Source: Planctomycetes bacterium syqfu
Lineage (GTDB): Bacteria > Planctomycetota > Phycisphaerae > Phycisphaerales > Phycisphaeraceae
DNA: 64,000 nt
Assembly (NCBI GenBank): GCA_020974905.1
Contig: CP087563.1
Location: 2,232,001 to 2,296,000 of the forward strand
Direction: 5' to 3'
Positions 27,351-39,652 of the stretch are shown in pieces (the first letter of the stretch is position 1; the number at the start of each line of letters is the position of its first letter). A model generated the notes under the pieces. It did not search any database. It had not been told where the DNA came from and saw only the letters and a program-made list of their open reading frames with translations. The position numbers and the translations under genes are program-made.

Positions 27351-27968
27351 TATGGTCCGAAATCAGGCCGTCTGAAAAGAACGATACAAGACGGAAGCAT
27401 GCACACAAGACCGGAAGTAACGGGTAACAGATGTATTCCGAAACACGCAAGGCACTCGAGACAGTGGCGATTTTATGTTACGCACTTTTTTATTTTACCC
27501 CGCAACAATCAAATATCAATGCGTGATAATAATATTTTTCTCCTATCGGTCCTAAAAAAACTACTCATGGCACAATACTGTCCGCCAGCATTAAGACATT
27601 GCCATTTATATTTTTATGATCAAAACAAAACTGCAAGAACATTCAGGCATTGCGATGACCACACTGCCCCTGAAATTGAATGTTTGAATACCCAAGCCCT
27701 TCAGAGACATTGGCTCTGCATAACAGATGTATGGCCCATTCCACAAATAAGCTGTGCGCGATTGGAGTACTGAACACCCTGCTGATGCGAGACTCTTCTC
27801 AAAAATGAACCACTGATCATGCGGCTGCGTTAAACGTTTGAGGATTGTCCCATGCCGTTTGTGGTAGGGTTAAGCGTATCGCTGAATAAACAATACTGTT
27901 TTCACGTGAAGTCGCGTTAGACACACCGTCTATATCTTCCACAAACAAAGTATGTTTAAGCGGCAAAA
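27351..27968. promoter_or_regulatory. Long intergenic region between transporter and pseudopilin genes
   Basis: No gene is visible. At 27832-27839 there is a perfect AAACGTTT palindrome with a central CG, within TTAAACGTTTGA, the usual form of a LacI-family operator. It lies about 480 bases upstream of the pseudopilin start, and a role for it is unproven. The region probably contains the promoter for the pseudopilin and giant-protein genes. Confidence 0.35.
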
Positions 27969-29879
27969 TTACTTCTCAACGGGCACAACAATACCACGCA
28001 TAATAATATTTTGTGCAAATACAAAGACGAAAAATGTGGGGACGGATGCGATCATCAGGGAAGCAAACACCACACCTTGCGTACTCTGGGATTGCAGTTG
28101 GTACAACCAGACCATCAGTGTCCACATCTTGCTGTCCTGACAGGTTAACAACGCAAACATGAAGTTGGAGTAAGCATGATTAAACGCGGAAAGTGCGATC
28201 ACTGCCAGAATGGGCTTGGATAGATTCATGGTGATCTGCCAGAACATCACCCATTCACCTGCACCATCCAATTCGGCTGACTCATACAACTCCTTGGGCA
28301 GTGAATCAAAAAATCCCTTGAGCAGGAAAATACTGTACCCATTGGCTAACGAAGGCAGAATCAATGCTGCAAACGAGTTGAGCAGCCCCAATTCACGCAA
28401 CATCAGAAAGTTGGGGATCTGTGTCACCATCGGAGGAAATGCCATCGTCAGCATCAGGAACAAAAGGATCTTATAAGTCGAAGGCATTTTGTAACGACTC
28501 ATTGCATAGGCTGCCATCGGGTTGACAATTAACGCAGAGAGAATCGACAGGACGCAGTAGACAACGGTATTAAACACACCGCGCCCATGCAGCACAATGT
28601 AGTTGAACACCGTGATGTAATTGCGTGCAAGGAACTCCCAGCGAAGTTTTCCAGTGATCTGTCTGAACATACGATCATGCCATTGCCTTTGAGGTGGCCG
28701 AATGTCAGCAATGGATGCGTAGGTGGTTCCCAGCGTCTCGTTGATCTTATCCAGGGAACCATGCTGCATAAGCAGGTAGTCAGCAAAACGAAAGTCCGTG
28801 CAGTCATACATCAGAGCATTGTCAGGAATGATGAATTTTTGACCGGTCTTTGGATCGATCCAACCTTCCACCATCCCCTGCCAATCCACAAACTTTTGTG
28901 GCGTGGTGTATGGTTGTCCGCCCATGGGAACCTGAGCATAATCGACATAGGATGTGCCATGAGCCTTATTCAAATCATCAATGCCTGGATATTTCGCTTT
29001 GAGAAAATCGATGTAAAGAGGCCTCGCCGATTCATCAGCAGTGAGCCACAACAGATTGACGGTTCGGCGGGTGAAATTGAGCCAATCCTGCTTTTCCAAA
29101 GCTGTCCCATTCACTGGCAACATACGCGGCAGATGAACTTGATCATAGCTTGTATAGCCTGTCCCATGTATCCTGTTATACTCAGCGATATCCCGTGTGT
29201 ATTGTGTCTTCAAAAATAATGAACGATACATCCCAGGAATGCTGGGATAGATACGATAAACATTCGGAGCTTCTTTTAAAAATGCTGCGGTACGCATCTG
29301 GAATTCTGACTGATTGGGCACCTCACGTCGCTGGATATAAGGTATCTGCTGGATGGTGAATGTATTCCAATTCATAAACTGCGTATTTAATTGACTGTTA
29401 AGCTTGTCAATATCGCCACCATATGTTTCACCCATCTGCCCCATGAATTCACGCAGCAACAACGGCTGGACCGTCCTGGAGACCGACATACCAGTCATCC
29501 CCACCACATTGGTATATTGAGACAAATCGGCCTGCTTAAGAAATGATTCCCAGCTATCTACGAGTTTGTCATTGATCGCATCCGGACGACGAGCTGCTTC
29601 AAAACTATTGTCATCCAGATTGTATGTCAGCTTGTACAGGTCCAACTTCTCATTGAAAAGACTTTCAATATACTTACGATAAAGCAGATCGTCACTTGTC
29701 AGAAAACCAGGAACCACACGCAGTTCATTGATATCCACGGAGCTTTTTGTGCTGCCGGCAATCATGAGCATGAATGGGTAAATCATTGTGACTGAACCAA
29801 GAATCAAAAGCAGATAGATTCCGCCAATAAGTAGTCGAACACGCAGACTCTTTCGGCCAATGGTTGAGATCAAGGGCAT
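27969..29879 (-). CDS. Sugar ABC transporter permease (MalG type) with ~380-residue insert
   Basis: Residues 15-40 form the first membrane helix, and the remaining five helices and the EAA loop (LYESAELDGAGEWVMFWQI, 531-549) lie after residue 425. These match carbohydrate permeases of the MalG/binding-protein-dependent type, which are normally about 280 residues. Residues 45 to about 425 form an extra domain between helices 1 and 2, on the outer face. In it a motif of the form NxxxGTxY recurs: NRIHGTGY (235), NKAHGTSY (304), NETLGTTY (380), and a weaker NSQLNTQF (161). The insert might bind substrate or meet the binding protein. It sits 49 bases after the MalF-type permease gene. No ATPase gene is nearby, so a shared ATPase must serve it. 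Confidence 0.85.
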   Translation of the reverse strand: MPLISTIGRKSLRVRLLIGGIYLLLILGSVTMIYPFMLMIAGSTKSSVDINELRVVPGFLTSDDLLYRKYIESLFNEKLDLYKLTYNLDDNSFEAARRPDAINDKLVDSWESFLKQADLSQYTNVVGMTGMSVSRTVQPLLLREFMGQMGETYGGDIDKLNSQLNTQFMNWNTFTIQQIPYIQRREVPNQSEFQMRTAAFLKEAPNVYRIYPSIPGMYRSLFLKTQYTRDIAEYNRIHGTGYTSYDQVHLPRMLPVNGTALEKQDWLNFTRRTVNLLWLTADESARPLYIDFLKAKYPGIDDLNKAHGTSYVDYAQVPMGGQPYTTPQKFVDWQGMVEGWIDPKTGQKFIIPDNALMYDCTDFRFADYLLMQHGSLDKINETLGTTYASIADIRPPQRQWHDRMFRQITGKLRWEFLARNYITVFNYIVLHGRGVFNTVVYCVLSILSALIVNPMAAYAMSRYKMPSTYKILLFLMLTMAFPPMVTQIPNFLMLRELGLLNSFAALILPSLANGYSIFLLKGFFDSLPKELYESAELDGAGEWVMFWQITMNLSKPILAVIALSAFNHAYSNFMFALLTCQDSKMWTLMVWLYQLQSQSTQGVVFASLMIASVPTFFVFVFAQNIIMRGIVVPVEK

Positions 29880-29928
29880 GATGTACGTTTCCGTTAGAAA
29901 AACATTCAGGGATTGATGACGCTGTATC

Positions 29929-31026
29929 TTACTTTTTGCCAGTGGTTTTAAATTCCAGACGGCTGAGAATGCGCAACTGATACACGGTAAAACCGATCAT
30001 CATGAAACCCAATAGCCAAGCCATCGCGGTGGCAGGTCCCATATTCAAATAAGTAAACGCCTCATAGAAAATGCGCAGACCAGCGACTTCTGTATTTGCC
30101 CCACCAGCTGTCATAGCCAGAATGTTGGCAGAACTCATCCATGCTCCAATGAACACGCCGATGAAGTTGATGATGATCAACGGCTTTAAAATCGGGAATA
30201 CCACGAAAAGTATCTTGTCAATAAAGCCTGCACCATCCAGATCCGCAGCTTCATAAAAGTCATCAGGAATGCCTTTAAGTGCCGCCAGGTAAATCAGGCA
30301 TCCCGGCCCCATCCCTGCCCAGACCATCGGAATCACACAGGCGATCATGGCCGTATTACTATTGCTCAACCACTGATAGGGTTCGGGCAAAGTATTAAAC
30401 AATCGGGGCACAAACATGATCGCCCAGTGGATCATATGTTCGCCCGAGGGAAAAAGAATCGGCGATGCCAGTGAAATACTGGAATAGCACAGTACAAAGC
30501 CCGCAATAATGAAAGCCACCCCTGGTTTAAAGGCATCATGGAATAAAAGACGTCGGCCGAATTGAACACAGACAACGAGTAATACCAAACCGAAAGCAAC
30601 ATACACCACTGCCGGAACCATCATCAGGACACAGTTGAGTGCACCAGCTTCTGATGGAGCGTAAAACATCTTCCACAATAACATCGTCACAAGACCCGTG
30701 ATCACAGCCGGCAGGTAAAAAATTGTACGAAAAAGGATCTTGCCACTGGGCACTTCCTGAAGCAGAATCGCCAGAATGACCGGCGGTAGGAAGGTCAATG
30801 AAATGACCAGAAAGCAGTAACGCATTGAGTTATACAGCGACTGCCACCACTCGACATCAAAGAGCACATTGCCAAAGTTATCCAAGCCGGTGAACTTGGA
30901 ATTGCCCATGATATTGTAATCCATAAACGCCATCGCCGAACCGCGAGCCAGCGGGATGTAACTCCAGACAAAAATAGTCAGCAGCGCAGGAACGAGTAAA
31001 AGGTATGCATTCCAGTACTTTTTAAA
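29929..31026 (-). CDS. Sugar ABC transporter permease (MalF type), probably made by -1 frameshift from the binding-protein gene
   Basis: The C-terminal 330 residues match MalF/UgpA-type permeases, with the EAA loop FYEAADLDGAGFIDKI. The first in-frame ATG (30933) would start inside the protein. The frame upstream encodes an obvious first membrane helix (NAYLLLVPALLTIFVWSY), and no ATG, GTG or TTG occurs in this frame between the stop at 31195 and 30933. The frame is the -1 frame of the binding-protein gene and is entered exactly at a T-TTA-AAA heptamer (31020-31026). A frameshift there would give a fusion of about 929 residues. An inactivating indel or sequencing error is the alternative. The coordinates given are those of the part in the permease frame. 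Confidence 0.75.
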   Translation of the reverse strand, partial: FKKYWNAYLLLVPALLTIFVWSYIPLARGSAMAFMDYNIMGNSKFTGLDNFGNVLFDVEWWQSLYNSMRYCFLVISLTFLPPVILAILLQEVPSGKILFRTIFYLPAVITGLVTMLLWKMFYAPSEAGALNCVLMMVPAVVYVAFGLVLLVVCVQFGRRLLFHDAFKPGVAFIIAGFVLCYSSISLASPILFPSGEHMIHWAIMFVPRLFNTLPEPYQWLSNSNTAMIACVIPMVWAGMGPGCLIYLAALKGIPDDFYEAADLDGAGFIDKILFVVFPILKPLIIINFIGVFIGAWMSSANILAMTAGGANTEVAGLRIFYEAFTYLNMGPATAMAWLLGFMMIGFTVYQLRILSRLEFKTTGKK

Positions 31027-32717
31027 TCCCCAGCTAACTCGCTTACCGTCAAGCGCTGCGCGCTGGGAGGTGTGAAGGTGCGAATGACTCTTCGGAATAC
31101 ATATCCAAATGCAATCACAATCAGAGCCAACACAATCGCAGCTGTCAGACGTCGCTTCTGTTTTTGCTTTGGTGTCAGGATGCCGATCATTTTTTCATTG
31201 GCTTTGGCAACCGCGTCATCAAGAATCTGCCGCAACTGTGCCGTGCGAATATCAGGATCTTCCGACAGATCACCATTCATATACATCTGCTCAGCTTGCT
31301 GAATCGGAACGGTCATCATGTCATAAGCAATATTACTATTGCGACCGTAAGGTTCGGGCTTGCCGGTATCGATAGCAATTTCAAATGCCCTGGCCCAACC
31401 TGGAGGGGTCAACTGCATCACATCTTCATAGCCATATTTCTCAAGATATTTGGGGTTCACAAATCGTCCCAGACCGCCTTCGACCATGATTCGTGTTTTA
31501 ATTCTTGAGGCCTCATCTGAGTCGTAGAACCAGATATATTCAAATGCAGCATCACGAATCACGGGATTATCAACCCCCGCGAATATGCCGAACATACGAC
31601 TATTGAGTTCGCCACCGCGCATACGATTGCCGTTCTCATCAGGGGGGCCAAGTGGAACAGGAACCATGCCTGTGACATCAGGATTAATCGTGGAAAACAA
31701 CTTCTCATCAATGTAGGCAAACTGCATCCCGATCTTGCCTTGATCCCATTTGGTTCCGGCACCAGCCGCATCCTTGGAACTGTAACCCCGGCGGATCATA
31801 CCATTGTTATCCGTCCATTTTTCAGCACCCAATTTGGTATAAAAGTCCAGCGCTTTGACTGCAGCTTCGCTGTTAAATGCACAGCGCCACTGATCATTCG
31901 CTTCGTCATAAATCATCACCTCACCACCAGCGGACCATAAGAACGTAATCCAAAACCAGGATTCAGTTTTACCACGGCCTAATTGCATCCCATAAAGGTC
32001 ATTGGCCGGGTCCGTCAGTTTTTGGGCAGCATCAAAGAGTTGTTCCCATGTCCAGTTCAAATCGGGATATGGAATATTGTTTTCGTCAAAGCGATCTTTT
32101 CGAAATAACAACACCTTACCCAATGCACCACCATACGGAAGCGACCAGACATGGTTTTCACCCTTGGGCCCCTTGCGCTTGATGACGGGCCAAATTCGCT
32201 CATGCACGCGTTGATTCAGTTCATCCTGTGGCACGTTCTCAAGCCATTGATCCAATGGGTACAAAAAGCCATTGCGGATATAGGTATCACTTTTTCGAAA
32301 ATTAACATACAAAATGTCTGGCGCCATATCACCCGCAATCGCCAATAAATCCGTCTCGACATTCTCTACCTGAAGACCGGCAAAACGTTCTAGCTCAATC
32401 CGCACGTTGTCCCAGTTGTAATCGCCATAGATTTCAGGATGAGCTTTGTATTTAGCTGCATATTTACGGGAAAATATTTCACGAAACCGACGCTCAAACT
32501 GCCGTATCGCTGCAACATCGGCCCGACTGGATGTATCCATCCTGGATGGATCAGGCAGGTTGGCAACTTTGATATGAATAATTGTCTGACCGTCTTTGGA
32601 TTCAATCCATCCCGCATGAACATGCGAACATAAAATGGTAAGTAAAATCAAATATGCTACGCTCAATCGATACGACACAACATAAGTCAATAAATGTCGC
32701 TGCATTGGGTTTATCAC
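30978..32717 (-). CDS. ABC sugar-binding protein with C-terminal membrane anchor
   Basis: A signal peptide (hydrophobic run ending VHAG) precedes a bacterial extracellular solute-binding protein of family 1 type: DILYVNFRKSDTYIRNGFL, YPLDQWLENVP, LLFRKDRFDENNIPYPDLNW and TWEQLFDAAQKL are the standard motifs. The start is the GTG at 32717 (AAAGG seven bases upstream) or the ATG at 32705. Unlike ordinary binding proteins, the C-terminus carries KRRLTAAIVLALIVIAFGYV (about 521-540), a membrane helix with a basic cytoplasmic side. Free ribosomes end at 30978. Those that slip at 31020-31026 would continue into the permease. The topology (periplasmic domain, helix, cytosolic linker, permease) is consistent with such a fusion. 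Confidence 0.85.
   Translation of the reverse strand: MINPMQRHLLTYVVSYRLSVAYLILLTILCSHVHAGWIESKDGQTIIHIKVANLPDPSRMDTSSRADVAAIRQFERRFREIFSRKYAAKYKAHPEIYGDYNWDNVRIELERFAGLQVENVETDLLAIAGDMAPDILYVNFRKSDTYIRNGFLYPLDQWLENVPQDELNQRVHERIWPVIKRKGPKGENHVWSLPYGGALGKVLLFRKDRFDENNIPYPDLNWTWEQLFDAAQKLTDPANDLYGMQLGRGKTESWFWITFLWSAGGEVMIYDEANDQWRCAFNSEAAVKALDFYTKLGAEKWTDNNGMIRRGYSSKDAAGAGTKWDQGKIGMQFAYIDEKLFSTINPDVTGMVPVPLGPPDENGNRMRGGELNSRMFGIFAGVDNPVIRDAAFEYIWFYDSDEASRIKTRIMVEGGLGRFVNPKYLEKYGYEDVMQLTPPGWARAFEIAIDTGKPEPYGRNSNIAYDMMTVPIQQAEQMYMNGDLSEDPDIRTAQLRQILDDAVAKANEKMIGILTPKQKQKRRLTAAIVLALIVIAFGYVFRRVIRTFTPPSAQRLTVSELAGDLKSTGMHTFYSFLRC
31020..31026 (-). promoter_or_regulatory. Candidate programmed -1 frameshift site (T-TTA-AAA)
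   Basis: On the coding strand the binding-protein codons are GAT-TTA-AAA-AGT. The heptamer T-TTA-AAA is in the phase needed for tandem -1 slippage, after which codons read AAG-TAC-TGG-AAT, the start of the permease's first helix. The 0-frame stop follows 13 codons later at 30978. T-TTA-AAA is among the established efficient slippery heptamers. I did not find an obvious stimulatory hairpin or a well-spaced upstream ribosome-like site, so efficiency is uncertain. Confidence 0.6.
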
Positions 32718-33913
32718 AAGTCAACCTTTGCGTGGGGTAAACAATAACATCGTCATCAACAAAAATCGCATGAGGCATCTACACGGAAATTTCACCAATA
32801 CCTCAACGGTAAAAGCTCAATATCAAGTCAGGATGGTCAGCCAACAACATGAACACCGTCGTGTCGACGATTTGTATGCGGATCATCAAAACTGAGAGAC
32901 ACATGCCAAAAGGATTGTCATGATGCCCCAATTGCCAGTTCGACACCCGCCCCGGTAGTTGGTCTGTGCCTTGCACTTCACACATGAGCGAACTTAAACG
33001 CCCAGTGCATGACATACACCTACCTGGTCGCCATACATGACCACGAATCACATGCTGCCATAGCCACTACCATTAAATAGCTTCAATGTCATTTTACCCC
33101 ATATTTTTCATGTTTCTATACGTGATAAAATATTTCTTTGCATCTTCTCCCATAAAAGCCATCCATAGGTGCGTCCGAAAACCAGAAGCGACAAGAATCT
33201 GTCTATATCTTTTTATTTTTCTAATCTTTACATTTAAAACCCCAAAATGGCAGATCGCCATATGTTCTATTAATCTGATCCTGCAAAATTCACTCCAATG
33301 CACCGCACCTGTTTACTGAAAAATGAATACTGACCTGATTTCTCAAACAACGCCCATGAATTTCGAGAGAATCTCACGCCATTGAACACCATTTCAAGGC
33401 CCGAATACGGCACTCCTCAGAATGGGTTATTGACAAGCTCCGCAGAGCAGAATTGCTGCGAAACGGGTAGCTAAGCAAGCGTGGATATGGCGATCTTAAA
33501 GAAGGTCAACCGCTCAAACTTGTACCCCACGAATCTCAATGGCGAATGGTCGATGCGGATCGGTAGCTGATCACACAGATGCGTCAACTGCTTGCGTTCT
33601 TTCACGTTACGATTCCGTAAGTGTCCTTCCCGCACTCCCAATATCTGTGTTCACGCCAGCCAATTCAGTAGTGATGCCGGTGATCAAAATTACTTAGCAC
33701 CGTCCTGATGCTTGAGAGCCCGACCAAAATCCAAATAACCAATAGACAAAGCAATCATTGTGATTGTTGTTGTATGTGCGTTACATGTTTTTGAAAGGAT
33801 GCGAGCTGAACAAGACATTTCAAGAATTCGCAAACCCACACAAACCAGCACAACAATCCACTACGCCTCCAGTACGCAATATTACCTATTTGCAAACCAG
33901 TCTCATTTATGGG
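32718..33913. other. Long intergenic region between divergent transporter operons
   Basis: About 1.2 kb with no intact gene between the leftward sugar transporter and the rightward porin/metal operon. 33050-33320 is AT-rich. 33420-33610 reads, in one plus-strand frame with stops, GYGDLKEGQPLKLVPHESQW, which looks protein-like but belongs to no family I can name. It is probably eroded coding sequence plus both promoters. Confidence 0.4.
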
Positions 33914-35283: not shown

Positions 35284-35336
35284 AAACAACTTCAACAAAC
35301 CTCATGAATCGACAACAAGTCCGAAAGGAATTTTTT

Positions 35337-36350
35337 GTGTCTCATCGCAACACTTTTATGTTTTCCGTCCTTTGTGCTTTGTCACTGCTCTTTGCCATTG
35401 GTTGCGACAATCAATCTGACAACCACAACCATGACGATGCAACAACACAAAGCGAAATCCAATACCCGTACAAGATCACCACCACCGTGGGTATGATCAC
35501 CGACATCGTGCGTAACGTAGCTGGTGACAAGTCAGCGGTCCAAGGCATTATCGGTGAAGGCATCGATCCGCATCTCTACAAACCCACCCGGGGCGATGTG
35601 GTCAAACTCAGCCAGGCTGATGTCGTCTTTTACAGCGGTCTGATGCTTGAAGGCAAGATGGGGGATGTGCTCATTCGTGTGGCTCGCTCGGGTAAACCGG
35701 TCTATGCTGTCACCCAAGCGATTCTCGATCAAGGCGATTACGTGATGACCGATGAAGCAGAACATTACGACCCGCACGTCTGGATGGATGTGGCTGGTTG
35801 GATTCGCGCTGTGCAAGTCGTCGCCAAGTCATTGGGCGAATTTGACCCACAAAACAAGGCCTTTTATCAAACCAATGCCAAGGGTTACCTGGAACAATTA
35901 CACAAGCTCGATACTTATGCCAAGCAGGTGATCGGTTCGATCCCTCAAAAGCAGCGCGTGCTGGTCACTGCCCATGATGCGTTTAACTACATGGGTCGGG
36001 CCTACGATCTTAACGTTCGTGGCATTCAAGGTCTGAGCACAGAATCCGAAGCCGGTTTACAGGACATTGAAAAGCTCGTCAGCTTCCTGGTGGACAATAA
36101 AATTCCCGCCGTGTTCGTGGAAACTTCGGTTGCAGACAAGAACGTTCGCGCCCTGGTCGAAGGGGCCAAGGCACGCGGTCACCACGTCAGGATCGGTGGC
36201 GAACTCTTCTCCGATGCCATGGGCGAAGCCGGAACCTACGAAGGTACCTACATCGGCATGATTGATCATAACGTCACCCTCATCGCCCGTGCACTCGGAG
36301 GTCAAGCGCCCGAACGTGGCATGCAAGGGAAACTCAATCTTGAGCACTGA
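35337..36350 (+). CDS. Metal-binding lipoprotein of manganese/zinc/iron ABC transporter (TroA/YtgA type)
   Basis: I chose the GTG at 35337 because AAAGGAA sits seven bases before it. An ATG at 35304 in the same frame lacks such a site. The leader ends FAIGC, a lipobox-like site (Cys23). A short His/Asp-rich linker (NHNHDD) follows. The cluster A-I solute-binding fold is clear: [33 protein letters not shown] and LFSDAMG. Metal ligands are predicted as H79, H147, H213 and D293, the three-His/one-Asp set seen in TroA and ZnuA. The metal (Mn, Zn or Fe) cannot be decided from this. It delivers the ion to the downstream ATPase and permeases. Confidence 0.9.
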
Positions 36351-36402
36351 TCCGCTGGTCATAACGCAATCAAACTGTGACAAACAGAAAGTTCAAACCG
36401 CC

Positions 36403-37218
36403 ATGAATGCCCCAACTCACCCGCCATCTGTCCCATTGGCAATTGACGATTTAACCGTTGCCTATCACCGCAAGCCTGTACTCTGGGATGTCGATCTGGA
36501 TATCCCAGAAGGCAAACTCGTGGGCATCGTGGGCCCCAATGGTGCAGGTAAAAGCACGCTCATCAAAGCCTGTCTGGAACTCATCCCCAAGGCTTCAGGA
36601 CACGTAACGATTTACGGTCAACCGTATCGCAAGCAGCGATCACTGGTCGGTTATGTCCCGCAGCGCGAAAGTGTCGACTGGGACTTTCCGGTCAGCGCAC
36701 TGGATGTCGTGGCAATGGGAACCTACCGCAAACTCGGTTGGCTCCGCCCGGTGGCCAAAGAGCAAAAAGAATTGGCCTGCCATGCACTGGATCGCCTGGG
36801 CGTGGCACATTTGGCGAATCGTCAAATCAGCCAACTCTCCGGCGGGCAGCAACAGCGTGTCTTCCTGGCGCGGGCACTGGTTCAGGATGCTCAACTGTAT
36901 TTCATGGATGAACCCTTTGCAGCAGTGGATGCAGCGACGGAGCGCGCGATTGTCACCCTGCTACATGAACTCAAAGACCAGGGCAAAACCTGCCTGGTGG
37001 TCCATCACGATCTGGCGACAGTCGCACAGTATTTCGATTGGGTGGTGCTCTTGAACATGCGCGTCGTCAAGGCCGGCCCCACCGAAGAAATATTCACCAA
37101 GGAAAATCTCAAGGACACCTATGGCGGGCGATTGGCTTTGCTCGAAGAAGCAGGTCAGCGGCTACGTTATGCTGGAATCCCTGGCAGTTACCCCGGAAAC
37201 CCCGGAAGGAGTCAGTGA
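36403..37218 (+). CDS. Metal ABC transporter ATP-binding protein
   Basis: Starting at the ATG at 36403 gives 271 residues. The upstream open frame to 36262 overlaps the previous gene and adds no family sequence. The Walker A motif GPNGAGKST is at 44-52, the ABC signature is LSGGQQQR, Walker B is LYFMDEP, and a switch histidine follows in VVHHDL. It most resembles the MntB/ZnuC/YtgB ATPases of metal importers. It ends in TGATG, overlapping the next start by one base, so translation is coupled. Confidence 0.92.
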
Positions 37219-38714
37219 TGATAATGCAGCGTTGTCTGCCAATGTCTGTGTTCCTGCTTATTGCTTGCTTTGCGACGGTAGCCTTTGCATCACCATTTCA
37301 CAATCACGATCAACCGGTATCAGCGAATCGTGAGCTTGAGGCGCTATCCAATCGTGGGATCGACTGGCCCGGGGCATCGCAAATCATGCGTGTGGCAACA
37401 CTGCAAAATTACAACACGCGACTGGTCGTCTTGAGCACCACGATTCTCGGGACCGCCTCCGGACTCATTGGGACGTTTTTGCTTTTGCGTAAGCGTTCAC
37501 TGATGGGTGATGCGTTATCACATGCGTGTTTACCGGGAATTGGTTTGATGTTCATGATGATGGGCGCTCTGGGGGGTGACGGGAAATATCTGCCGGGACT
37601 TTTGCTTGGTGCAACCCTCACGGGTGTCGGAGGGGTCGTGCTGGTACTGCTGATTCGCAACACCACACGGGTCAAGGATGACGCAGCAATGGGACTCGTG
37701 CTATCCGTCATGTTCGGGATCGGCGTTGCGGTATTGGGGATGGTGCAAGCCATGCCTGGCGCAAGTGCTGCCGGACTGGAGTATTTCATCTATGGCAAAA
37801 CGGCGTCGATGGTGATGCAGGATTTCACGTTAATCAGTGCCGTCGCCGCAGCGGTGACCGTCATGAGTATGCTACTGTTTAAGGAATTCACGCTGGTCTG
37901 TTTTGATGAAGGCTACGCAAGCACGCAGGGTTGGCCGGTGAATTGGCTGGACATTGCGATGCTGAGTTTGGTTACATCGGTGACCGTTGTTGGCTTGCAA
38001 GCAGTGGGTTTGATTTTGATCATCGCGTTTTTAATCACCCCTGCTGCTGCTGCACGATTCTGGACGGAAAACCTCAAACGCATGTTACTGCTTTCAGGCA
38101 TGATCGGCGCGATCAGCGGTTGGTTGGGCTCGTCAATCAGTGCGTTACTCCCAAGACTACCTGCAGGTGCGGTGATCGTGGTGGTTGCTGCTACGATCTT
38201 TCTGATGAGTATGATTTTCGGTTCCTCGCGTGGCGTTCTTTTGCGAATGCTTGCGCGTCGTCGTCTGAATCGTAAGGTCGGTCGTCAACACCTGCTTCGT
38301 GCGGTGTATGAACTCATCGAATCGCGCAAGCATCCTGAGATGTCCGATGTCGCCAATGTTGCCATCAGCATGGATGAATTGCTCCTTCGTCGATCCTGGA
38401 CACGCAGTGAATTAGAAAAACTGATTCGTATAGCAACGCATGAGGATCACATCGAATATTACAACGGCAAGTTAATACGCCTTTCCGAACCGGGGTTTGG
38501 CGAGGCAGCACGCATCACGCGCAATCACCGGCTGTGGGAGATGTATCTGATCAAACACGCAGACGTTGCTGCAGCTCATGTGGACCGCGATGCCGATGCC
38601 GTGGAGCACGTGCTTGGTGCTGAGATGGTTCGCAAACTCGAAGAAGAGTTGGTCAAGCGCGGTCAGGCTTTGCTGGTACCACCCAGCCCGCACACGATTA
38701 TCACGGGAGCATAA
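37218..38714 (+). CDS. Metal ABC permease fused to DtxR/MntR-type repressor domain (YtgCR-like)
   Basis: The start is the ATG at 37218, overlapping the ATPase stop with a GGAAGGA site 7 bases upstream. The 498-residue product begins with an extra signal-like helix and a HNH-containing linker. An ABC-3 family permease follows to about 345 (LLLRKRSLMGDALSHACLPG, ITPAAAARFWT). The last 145 residues are a winged helix (MDELLLRRSWTRSELEKLI) and a DtxR metal-binding/dimerisation domain (ITRNHRLWEMYLIKHAD, DRDADAVEHVLG) with the conserved His and Glu-His ligands. In Chlamydia the equivalent YtgCR is cleaved to release an iron-dependent repressor. The same could apply here, with the palindrome at 33945 as target. 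Confidence 0.88.
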   Translation: MIMQRCLPMSVFLLIACFATVAFASPFHNHDQPVSANRELEALSNRGIDWPGASQIMRVATLQNYNTRLVVLSTTILGTASGLIGTFLLLRKRSLMGDALSHACLPGIGLMFMMMGALGGDGKYLPGLLLGATLTGVGGVVLVLLIRNTTRVKDDAAMGLVLSVMFGIGVAVLGMVQAMPGASAAGLEYFIYGKTASMVMQDFTLISAVAAAVTVMSMLLFKEFTLVCFDEGYASTQGWPVNWLDIAMLSLVTSVTVVGLQAVGLILIIAFLITPAAAARFWTENLKRMLLLSGMIGAISGWLGSSISALLPRLPAGAVIVVVAATIFLMSMIFGSSRGVLLRMLARRRLNRKVGRQHLLRAVYELIESRKHPEMSDVANVAISMDELLLRRSWTRSELEKLIRIATHEDHIEYYNGKLIRLSEPGFGEAARITRNHRLWEMYLIKHADVAAAHVDRDADAVEHVLGAEMVRKLEEELVKRGQALLVPPSPHTIITGA

Positions 38715-38719
38715 TGTAG

Positions 38720-39652
38720 ATGGTTTGGTTACCTTTGGATACATGGATTGTGGTGATCGGCGCGTTATGTGCGATGGCCTGTGCGCTGCCCGGATGCTTT
38801 CTGGTTCTCAGAAAAATGAGCATGATGGGTGATGCGATCAGTCACGCAGTCTTGCCCGGCTTGGCAATTGCGTTTTTAGTGACCGGTAGTCGTGCGAGCT
38901 TTGGCATGTTTATCGGCGCTGCCATCGTCGGTGTCATAACGGCTGTGTTCACGCAATGGATCAGCAGCTTCGGCAAAGTCGATCGCGGTGCGTCAATGGG
39001 CATTGTGTTCACCACGCTCTTTGCGTTGGGATTGCTCTTGATCGTACAGGCTGCGGATCACGTGGACCTTGATCCGGGGTGTGTGCTTTATGGGGCGATT
39101 GAACTCACGCCACTGGACACGACCATGACGATTGGCAGACTGGCCATCCCGCGTGCGGCGGTGGTGTTGGCAACGGTACTGTTGATCAACATGGCAATCA
39201 TTATCAGTTTTTTCAAGGAACTGCAGATCAGCGCGTTTGATCCTGCGCTCGCGACAACGATGGGCATCAATGCCACGCTGATGCATTACCTGCTTATGTC
39301 AATGGTCGCAGTCACCACGGTCGCCTCGTTTGAAGCAGTCGGCAGCATCATCGTCATTGCCATGCTCATCGCCCCGGCAGCTACCGCGTATCTGCTGACG
39401 GATCGGTTGTCGGTGATGCTGGTGATCAGCGCAGTTGCAGCAATTTTATCTTCAGCCCTTGGACACCTGAGTGCATTGACTGTACCACGTCTGTTTGGTT
39501 TTGAGTCCACCAACACGTCGGGGATGATGGCGGGCGCTACCGGTTTACTCTTTGGATTCGCATGGATATTGGCCCCGCGCTATGGCTTGTTGTCTCGATG
39601 GTTCCATCGCAAAAATCTGCTTGCTGAGGATCCAACAGTAACTGGCGAATAA
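38720..39652 (+). CDS. Metal ABC transporter permease (ABC-3 family, YtgD-like)
   Basis: The 310-residue protein starts 5 bases after the fusion permease and has eight to nine membrane helices. ABC-3 hallmarks are visible: FLVLRKMSMMGDAISHAVLPG, SFGKVDRGASMGIVFTTLFA, FEAVGSIIVIAMLIAPAATA and a C-terminal basic tail. Together with the previous gene it would form a heterodimeric channel. Gene order (binding protein, ATPase, permease-repressor, permease) is the same as ytgABCD. Confidence 0.9.
   Translation: MVWLPLDTWIVVIGALCAMACALPGCFLVLRKMSMMGDAISHAVLPGLAIAFLVTGSRASFGMFIGAAIVGVITAVFTQWISSFGKVDRGASMGIVFTTLFALGLLLIVQAADHVDLDPGCVLYGAIELTPLDTTMTIGRLAIPRAAVVLATVLLINMAIIISFFKELQISAFDPALATTMGINATLMHYLLMSMVAVTTVASFEAVGSIIVIAMLIAPAATAYLLTDRLSVMLVISAVAAILSSALGHLSALTVPRLFGFESTNTSGMMAGATGLLFGFAWILAPRYGLLSRWFHRKNLLAEDPTVTGE

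What the first reader, a model, noticed from the sequence alone, without database searches (positions are those of the whole stretch)
29929..32717. Predicted -1 frameshift makes a binding-protein/permease fusion
The sugar-binding protein ends with a membrane helix and a short tail. The MalF-type permease lies in its -1 frame and has no ATG, GTG or TTG ahead of its first membrane helix (open from 31194 to 29929, first ATG at 30933 is internal). At 31020-31026 the coding strand has T-TTA-AAA with codons TTA-AAA in the binding-protein frame. Slippage leads directly into AAG-TAC-TGG of the permease. That would yield about 929 residues with a sensible topology: periplasmic domain, helix, cytosolic linker, permease. 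Slippery heptamers and phasing are established knowledge; the functional claim is inference. It would couple binding protein to channel at a set ratio.
Basis: partly seen in the sequence, partly recalled or inferred. Interest (0 to 1): 0.85.

Follow-up and report, generated by a model that had tools for sequence, protein, structure and literature searches.

The report
Fused sugar importer gene, frame broken
In relatives this sugar-binding and membrane-channel protein is made from one unbroken gene; the copy in this window carries a small insertion-type change that knocks it out of frame, so it is most likely a sequencing error or a recent mutation rather than a built-in ribosomal frameshift.

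Summary
The permease has no ATG/GTG/TTG before helix 1, and T-TTA-AAA sits in phase at 31026-31020. The fusion inference is right: 47 distinct homologues carry both parts in ONE open frame (929 aa in the closest relative), from the same genus to Lentisphaeria, Kiritimatiellota and Verrucomicrobia, including two intact paralogues in this genome. The programmed-frameshift inference is not supported. A frameshift-aware alignment puts the break at a net +2 change (probably an extra GC in AGCGCGCAGCGC, 31064-31053), about 30 nt UPSTREAM of the heptamer; from there the permease frame is the homologous one. The heptamer is a by-product of conserved Phe-Lys-Lys codons: absent in the closest relative, and read in frame as TTT-AAA-AAA in the six homologues that have it. 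No downstream RNA structure. Both halves show strong purifying selection without decay, so the break is very recent or an error. Natural SBP-MalF fusions are already known (Licht 2019). Verdict: an ordinary fused importer gene with a singleton indel.

The parts
31062..32717 (-). Binding-protein half of the fused gene: signal/TM anchor, SBP_bac_1 domain, TM helix (LTAAIVLALIVIAFGYVF), ending ...TFTPPS; homologous in this frame up to 31062
   Evidence: Pfam SBP_bac_1 E=4.9e-19; 86.7% identical to G003:C42 in this frame up to 31056; dN/dS 0.08
31053..31064 (-). Site of the frame break: AGCGCGCAGCGC, net +2 nt (probably an extra GC) relative to eight close homologues
   Evidence: Frameshift-aware alignment gives +2 after 31062 against 7 of the 9 nearest homologues, +2 after 31053 against one, and -1 after 31041 against the most distant
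31020..31026 (-). T-TTA-AAA heptamer, the proposed slip site; off-frame reading of the conserved codons TTT-AAA-AAG (F-K-K)
   Evidence: absent in the closest homologue (TTT-AGG-AAA); no downstream RNA structure, z=+0.69
29929..31059 (-). MalF/UgpA-type permease half, homologous to relatives in this frame from AALDGKRVSWGFKKYW onward
   Evidence: BPD_transp_1 E=1.2e-7; UgpA model 78 bits; 91% identical to G003:C42; dN/dS 0.05
30978..31061 (-). Out-of-frame tail of the binding-protein ORF (AQRLTVSELAGDLKSTGMHTFYSFLRC, then stop); not homologous to the relatives in this frame
27969..29879 (-). Partner MalG/UgpE-type permease with a roughly 330-aa insert after helix 1; intact
   Evidence: BPD_transp_1 E=1.9e-12; 85% identical over 641 aa in one frame to G003

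Best explanation
The locus is an ABC sugar importer gene that is ancestrally a single open frame. It encodes a membrane-anchored binding protein, a transmembrane helix, a short cytosolic linker and a MalF-type permease, followed by a MalG-type permease gene. The window's copy carries a net +2 nt change (probably a duplicated GC) in the linker codons, which leaves two frames in place of one. The break is either a sequencing or assembly error or a very recent mutation; the data cannot separate these. The TTTAAAA heptamer is a by-product of conserved Phe-Lys-Lys codons. Shown: the single-frame fusion in relatives, the position of the break, the lack of heptamer conservation. Inferred: error or recent mutation, and the import function. 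The normal function (inferred from the family) is tethering the binding protein to its channel at 1:1.
For: 49 homologous ORFs (47 distinct) hold binding protein and permease in one open frame, across several genera and phyla (loci). Two intact paralogues lie in the same genome at 6.74 Mb and 6.70 Mb (931 and 958 aa, 86% and 83% identical). Frame-aware alignment places the shift at 31062-31053, upstream of the heptamer, as +2 against eight of nine relatives. tblastn of intact homologues changes frame between 31071 and 31056. The closest relative has TTT-AGG-AAA and no heptamer; six others have it only as in-frame TTT-AAA-AAA. dN/dS is 0.05-0.08 in both halves, and the distance to the outgroup paralogue is about the same as that of the intact relative. 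Structure after the heptamer is no better than shuffles. GeneTack classes homology-validated singletons as likely sequencing errors or recent indels (PMC3711429).
Against: No raw reads or second strain were available, so the extra bases are not shown to be an error. The other 16 window genes compared with relatives (about 27 kb) show no frame break of the window's own, so the assembly is not generally error-ridden. A dinucleotide indel is less typical of long-read error than a homopolymer indel (general knowledge).
Confidence: 0.93

Rival explanations
1. A programmed -1 ribosomal frameshift at T-TTA-AAA makes the fusion at a set ratio to the free binding protein.
For: The heptamer is in the right phase and leads into the permease frame without a stop.
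Against: Homologues are single-frame and need no shift. The heptamer is not conserved in the nearest relative and is off-phase in the six others that have it. Homology changes frame upstream of it. No stimulatory structure. If programmed, 31059-31027 would be read in the binding-protein frame, yet the homologous reading there is the permease frame.
Confidence: 0.02
2. The indel is a real mutation, and incidental slippage at T-TTA-AAA rescues a small amount of full-length protein (a 'saviour' frameshift), so the gene is not fully dead. This is compatible with the best explanation's mutation branch.
For: The heptamer lies 30 nt after the indel in rescuing phase with no stop between. Purifying selection shows no decay. 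Frameshifting that corrects problem indels is a recognised category (PMC5009743 abstract).
Against: No evidence of expression. The U_UUA tetramer alone shifts only 1.8-3.6 times above a 0.064% background threshold region in E. coli (PMC4066793); the figure for this heptamer could not be read. No stimulatory structure. The lack of decay is explained equally by a recent break or an error.
Confidence: 0.06
3. Genuine recent loss of function: a third, redundant copy becoming a pseudogene, or a mixed population (the mutation branch of the best explanation, without rescue).
For: Two intact paralogues exist in the genome. Other window genes are unbroken, so the error rate is low.
Against: No second lesion and no raised dN anywhere in the gene. 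It cannot be told from an error here.
Confidence: 0.4
4. Phase variation by a dinucleotide repeat.
For: The break lies in a short GC repeat, GCGC.
Against: So few repeat units are too short for known slipped-strand switches (general knowledge). No such repeat at this place in the relatives.
Confidence: 0.01

Closest known systems
MalE-MalF natural fusion transporter (Licht et al. 2019, Res Microbiol 170:1-12, cited in PMC7756565; from Bdellovibrio by recollection)
   Same: A single solute-binding domain fused to the MalF-type transmembrane subunit; reported transport-competent (PMC7756565)
   Different: Substrate unknown here, other phyla; this window's copy is out of frame
SBD-fused importers GlnPQ and OpuA
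   Same: Substrate-binding domains covalently linked to the transmembrane part (PMC8025302, PMC11065425, abstracts)
   Different: Amino-acid and betaine families, not the carbohydrate MalFG type
dnaX / IS-type -1 programmed frameshifting
   Same: A slippery X_XXY_YYZ heptamer in phase
   Different: No conservation, no stimulator, and homologues are single-frame

Membership tests
SBP-MalF fused carbohydrate importer (CUT1-like) | Solute-binding domain of the SBP_bac_1 type | tested here: met
   SBP_bac_1 E=4.9e-19
SBP-MalF fused carbohydrate importer (CUT1-like) | BPD_transp_1 permease of the MalF/UgpA type, C-terminal | tested here: met
   BPD_transp_1 E=1.2e-7; UgpA and MalF models hit below their equivalog cut-offs; MalF structures matched by the intact homologue
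SBP-MalF fused carbohydrate importer (CUT1-like) | Both in one polypeptide | tested here: inconclusive
   One open frame in 47 distinct homologues but two frames in the window's own sequence
SBP-MalF fused carbohydrate importer (CUT1-like) | Sugar transport activity | not testable with these tools
   No assay
-1 programmed ribosomal frameshift gene | Slippery heptamer in zero-frame phase | tested here: met
   T-TTA-AAA at 31026-31020
-1 programmed ribosomal frameshift gene | Frameshift arrangement and motif conserved among homologues (GeneTack criterion, PMC3711429) | tested here: not met
   Homologues single-frame; motif absent in the nearest and off-phase in six others
-1 programmed ribosomal frameshift gene | Downstream stimulatory structure | tested here: not met
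   z=+0.69 against shuffles; some proven cases lack one (PMC4066793)
-1 programmed ribosomal frameshift gene | Trans-frame product observed | not testable with these tools
   No proteomics
Singleton indel (sequencing error or recent mutation) | Homologues span the junction in one frame; no other member shares the break | tested here: met
   L058 is broken too, but at a different place

The most novel reading that the evidence does not exclude
A real, fixed 2-nt insertion in a fused importer gene is tolerated because ribosomes slip at the pre-existing T-TTA-AAA 30 nt downstream, giving mostly free membrane-anchored binding protein plus some fusion protein: an incidental frameshift rescue newly captured in a bacterium.
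Probability: 0.05. Interest if true: 0.45.

Novelty: new member of a known kind. Interest (0 to 1): 0.12.

Why it matters
It shows how a slippery heptamer in phase can arise passively from conserved codons (F-K-K) once an upstream indel changes the frame, a trap for frameshift prediction. It also documents a broad family of single-gene SBP-MalF fusions in Phycisphaeraceae, Lentisphaeria, Kiritimatiellota and Verrucomicrobia, in which binding protein and channel subunit are fixed at 1:1.

Tried and rejected
A pattern search for TTTAAAAGTACTGG in the genome gave no match because I wrote one A too few. A two-sequence DNA alignment used wrong coordinates in the relative and is not used; replace it. 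One search failed on a wrong frame; rerun. A DNA search over the length limit failed; rerun in pieces. Literature searches for SBP-permease fusions in Planctomycetes found nothing direct. Considered and rejected: a separate permease gene with its own start (none among the relatives read); translational coupling with reinitiation at 30933 (would lose helix 1); phase variation (repeat too short); structure-stimulated frameshift. No structure prediction was run, because it would not decide between error, mutation and frameshift.

Full report
What is in the sequence. On the minus strand the binding-protein ORF runs 32717-30978 (579 aa) and ends in a transmembrane helix and a tail. The permease frame is open 31194-29929, and its first ATG, at 30933, lies after helix 1. 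T-TTA-AAA lies at 31026-31020 in the binding-protein phase, and a -1 slip leads into AAG-TAC-TGG. Pfam assigns SBP_bac_1 to the first part and BPD_transp_1 to the second; the permease scores best with UgpA. The partner gene 29879-27969 is a MalG/UgpE-type permease.

Homologues. The window lies at 2.232-2.296 Mb of a 7.38-Mb single-contig genome. Its nearest matches in the named collection are Phycisphaeraceae/Phycisphaerales MAGs (UBA7800, NAT22, NORP295). The permease part hits the same genus at 82-91% identity, and every such hit lies in an open frame of 929-965 aa; only the window's copy lies in a short one, 421 aa. Of 51 homologous ORFs collected from Phycisphaeraceae, Lentisphaeria, Kiritimatiellota, Verrucomicrobia and others, 49 hold binding protein and permease in one frame (two of these 49 are duplicates). 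One exception is cut by a contig end (L073). The other (L058) is disrupted at a different place. The window's own genome has two intact paralogues, at 6,741 kb (931 aa) and 6,703 kb (958 aa). Pfam finds both domains in one ORF in the two intact copies tested, the permease domain falling below Pfam's cut-off in one of them. So the fusion is ancestral and needs no frameshift.

Where the frame breaks. A frameshift-aware alignment of window DNA to the proteins of nine relatives gives a +2 shift after 31062 against seven, +2 after 31053 against one, and -1 after 31041 against the most distant. tblastn of intact proteins changes frame between 31071 and 31056. With GC at 31061-31060 counted as the extra bases, the permease-frame reading from there, AALDGKRVSWGFKKYW, matches the relatives (for example TSLDGKQVRWGFKKYW) in sequence and in linker length. 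A single-base loss with one more residue cannot be excluded, but fits the linker length worse. Either way the break is about 30 nt upstream of the heptamer, and the stretch between them is homologous in the permease frame, not in the frame a ribosome would use before slipping at 31020-31026.

The heptamer. It is the off-frame reading of the conserved codons TTT-AAA-AAA/G (F-K-K). Of the 47 homologues readable at this place, six carry TTTAAAA there, all in the TTT-AAA-AAA phase; the closest relative reads TTT-AGG-AAA and most others TTC-CGC or similar. Folding of the 85 nt downstream is no better than shuffles (z=+0.69). In-phase X_XXY_YYZ heptamers of any kind occur in 23% of comparable stretches of the window's genes, the AAAA/AAAG kind in about 3%.

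Error, mutation or rescue. dN/dS between the window and its closest relative is 0.08 (binding protein) and 0.05 (permease). Distances to the outgroup paralogue are nearly equal for the window and the intact relative (dN 0.170 against 0.162; 0.095 against 0.089), so there is no decay. Synonymous distances are large (dS near or above 1), so dN/dS is approximate. The break is therefore an error or very young. Sixteen other window genes (about 27 kb) compared with syntenic or homologous genes show no break of the window's own, so a generally poor sequence is not the reason. GeneTack (PMC3711429) classes such homology-validated singletons as likely sequencing errors or recent indels. Whether the heptamer gives some rescue cannot be tested here.

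What is known. Fusion of a binding domain to MalF is natural and transport-competent (Licht et al. 2019 as cited in PMC7756565). GlnPQ and OpuA are analogous in other importer families. The locus is therefore a member of a known kind, widespread in these groups, and the frameshift part of the finding is most probably not a biological device.

Noticed in passing
27969-29879: The partner MalG-type permease carries a roughly 330-residue insert after helix 1 with repeated 'GTxY'-type motifs and a weak GH42 (PF02449) match; it is conserved in relatives and its role is unclear.
   Followed up: partly
27500-33900 against L094 (G001:C207): In a congeneric genome the flanking genes (24.6-27.5 kb and 33.9-39.8 kb of the window) are neighbours on one contig and the whole transporter module is absent between them; related modules sit on other contigs.
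   Followed up: partly
L094:7147-7962 against window 38720-39652: The congeneric contig shows a frame difference near window 39030 in an ABC-3 metal transporter permease; the window's ORF is intact with a continuous Pfam domain, so the break is probably in the MAG contig.
   Followed up: partly
L058:3990-4010: A Verrucomicrobia MAG (SKYG124) copy of the same fused gene is also disrupted, with helix and linker missing, at a different position.
   Followed up: partly
35304-39652: ZnuABC-type metal importer operon; one ABC-3 permease (37038-38714) has a C-terminal iron-dependent-repressor domain (Fe_dep_repr_C) fused to it.
   Followed up: no
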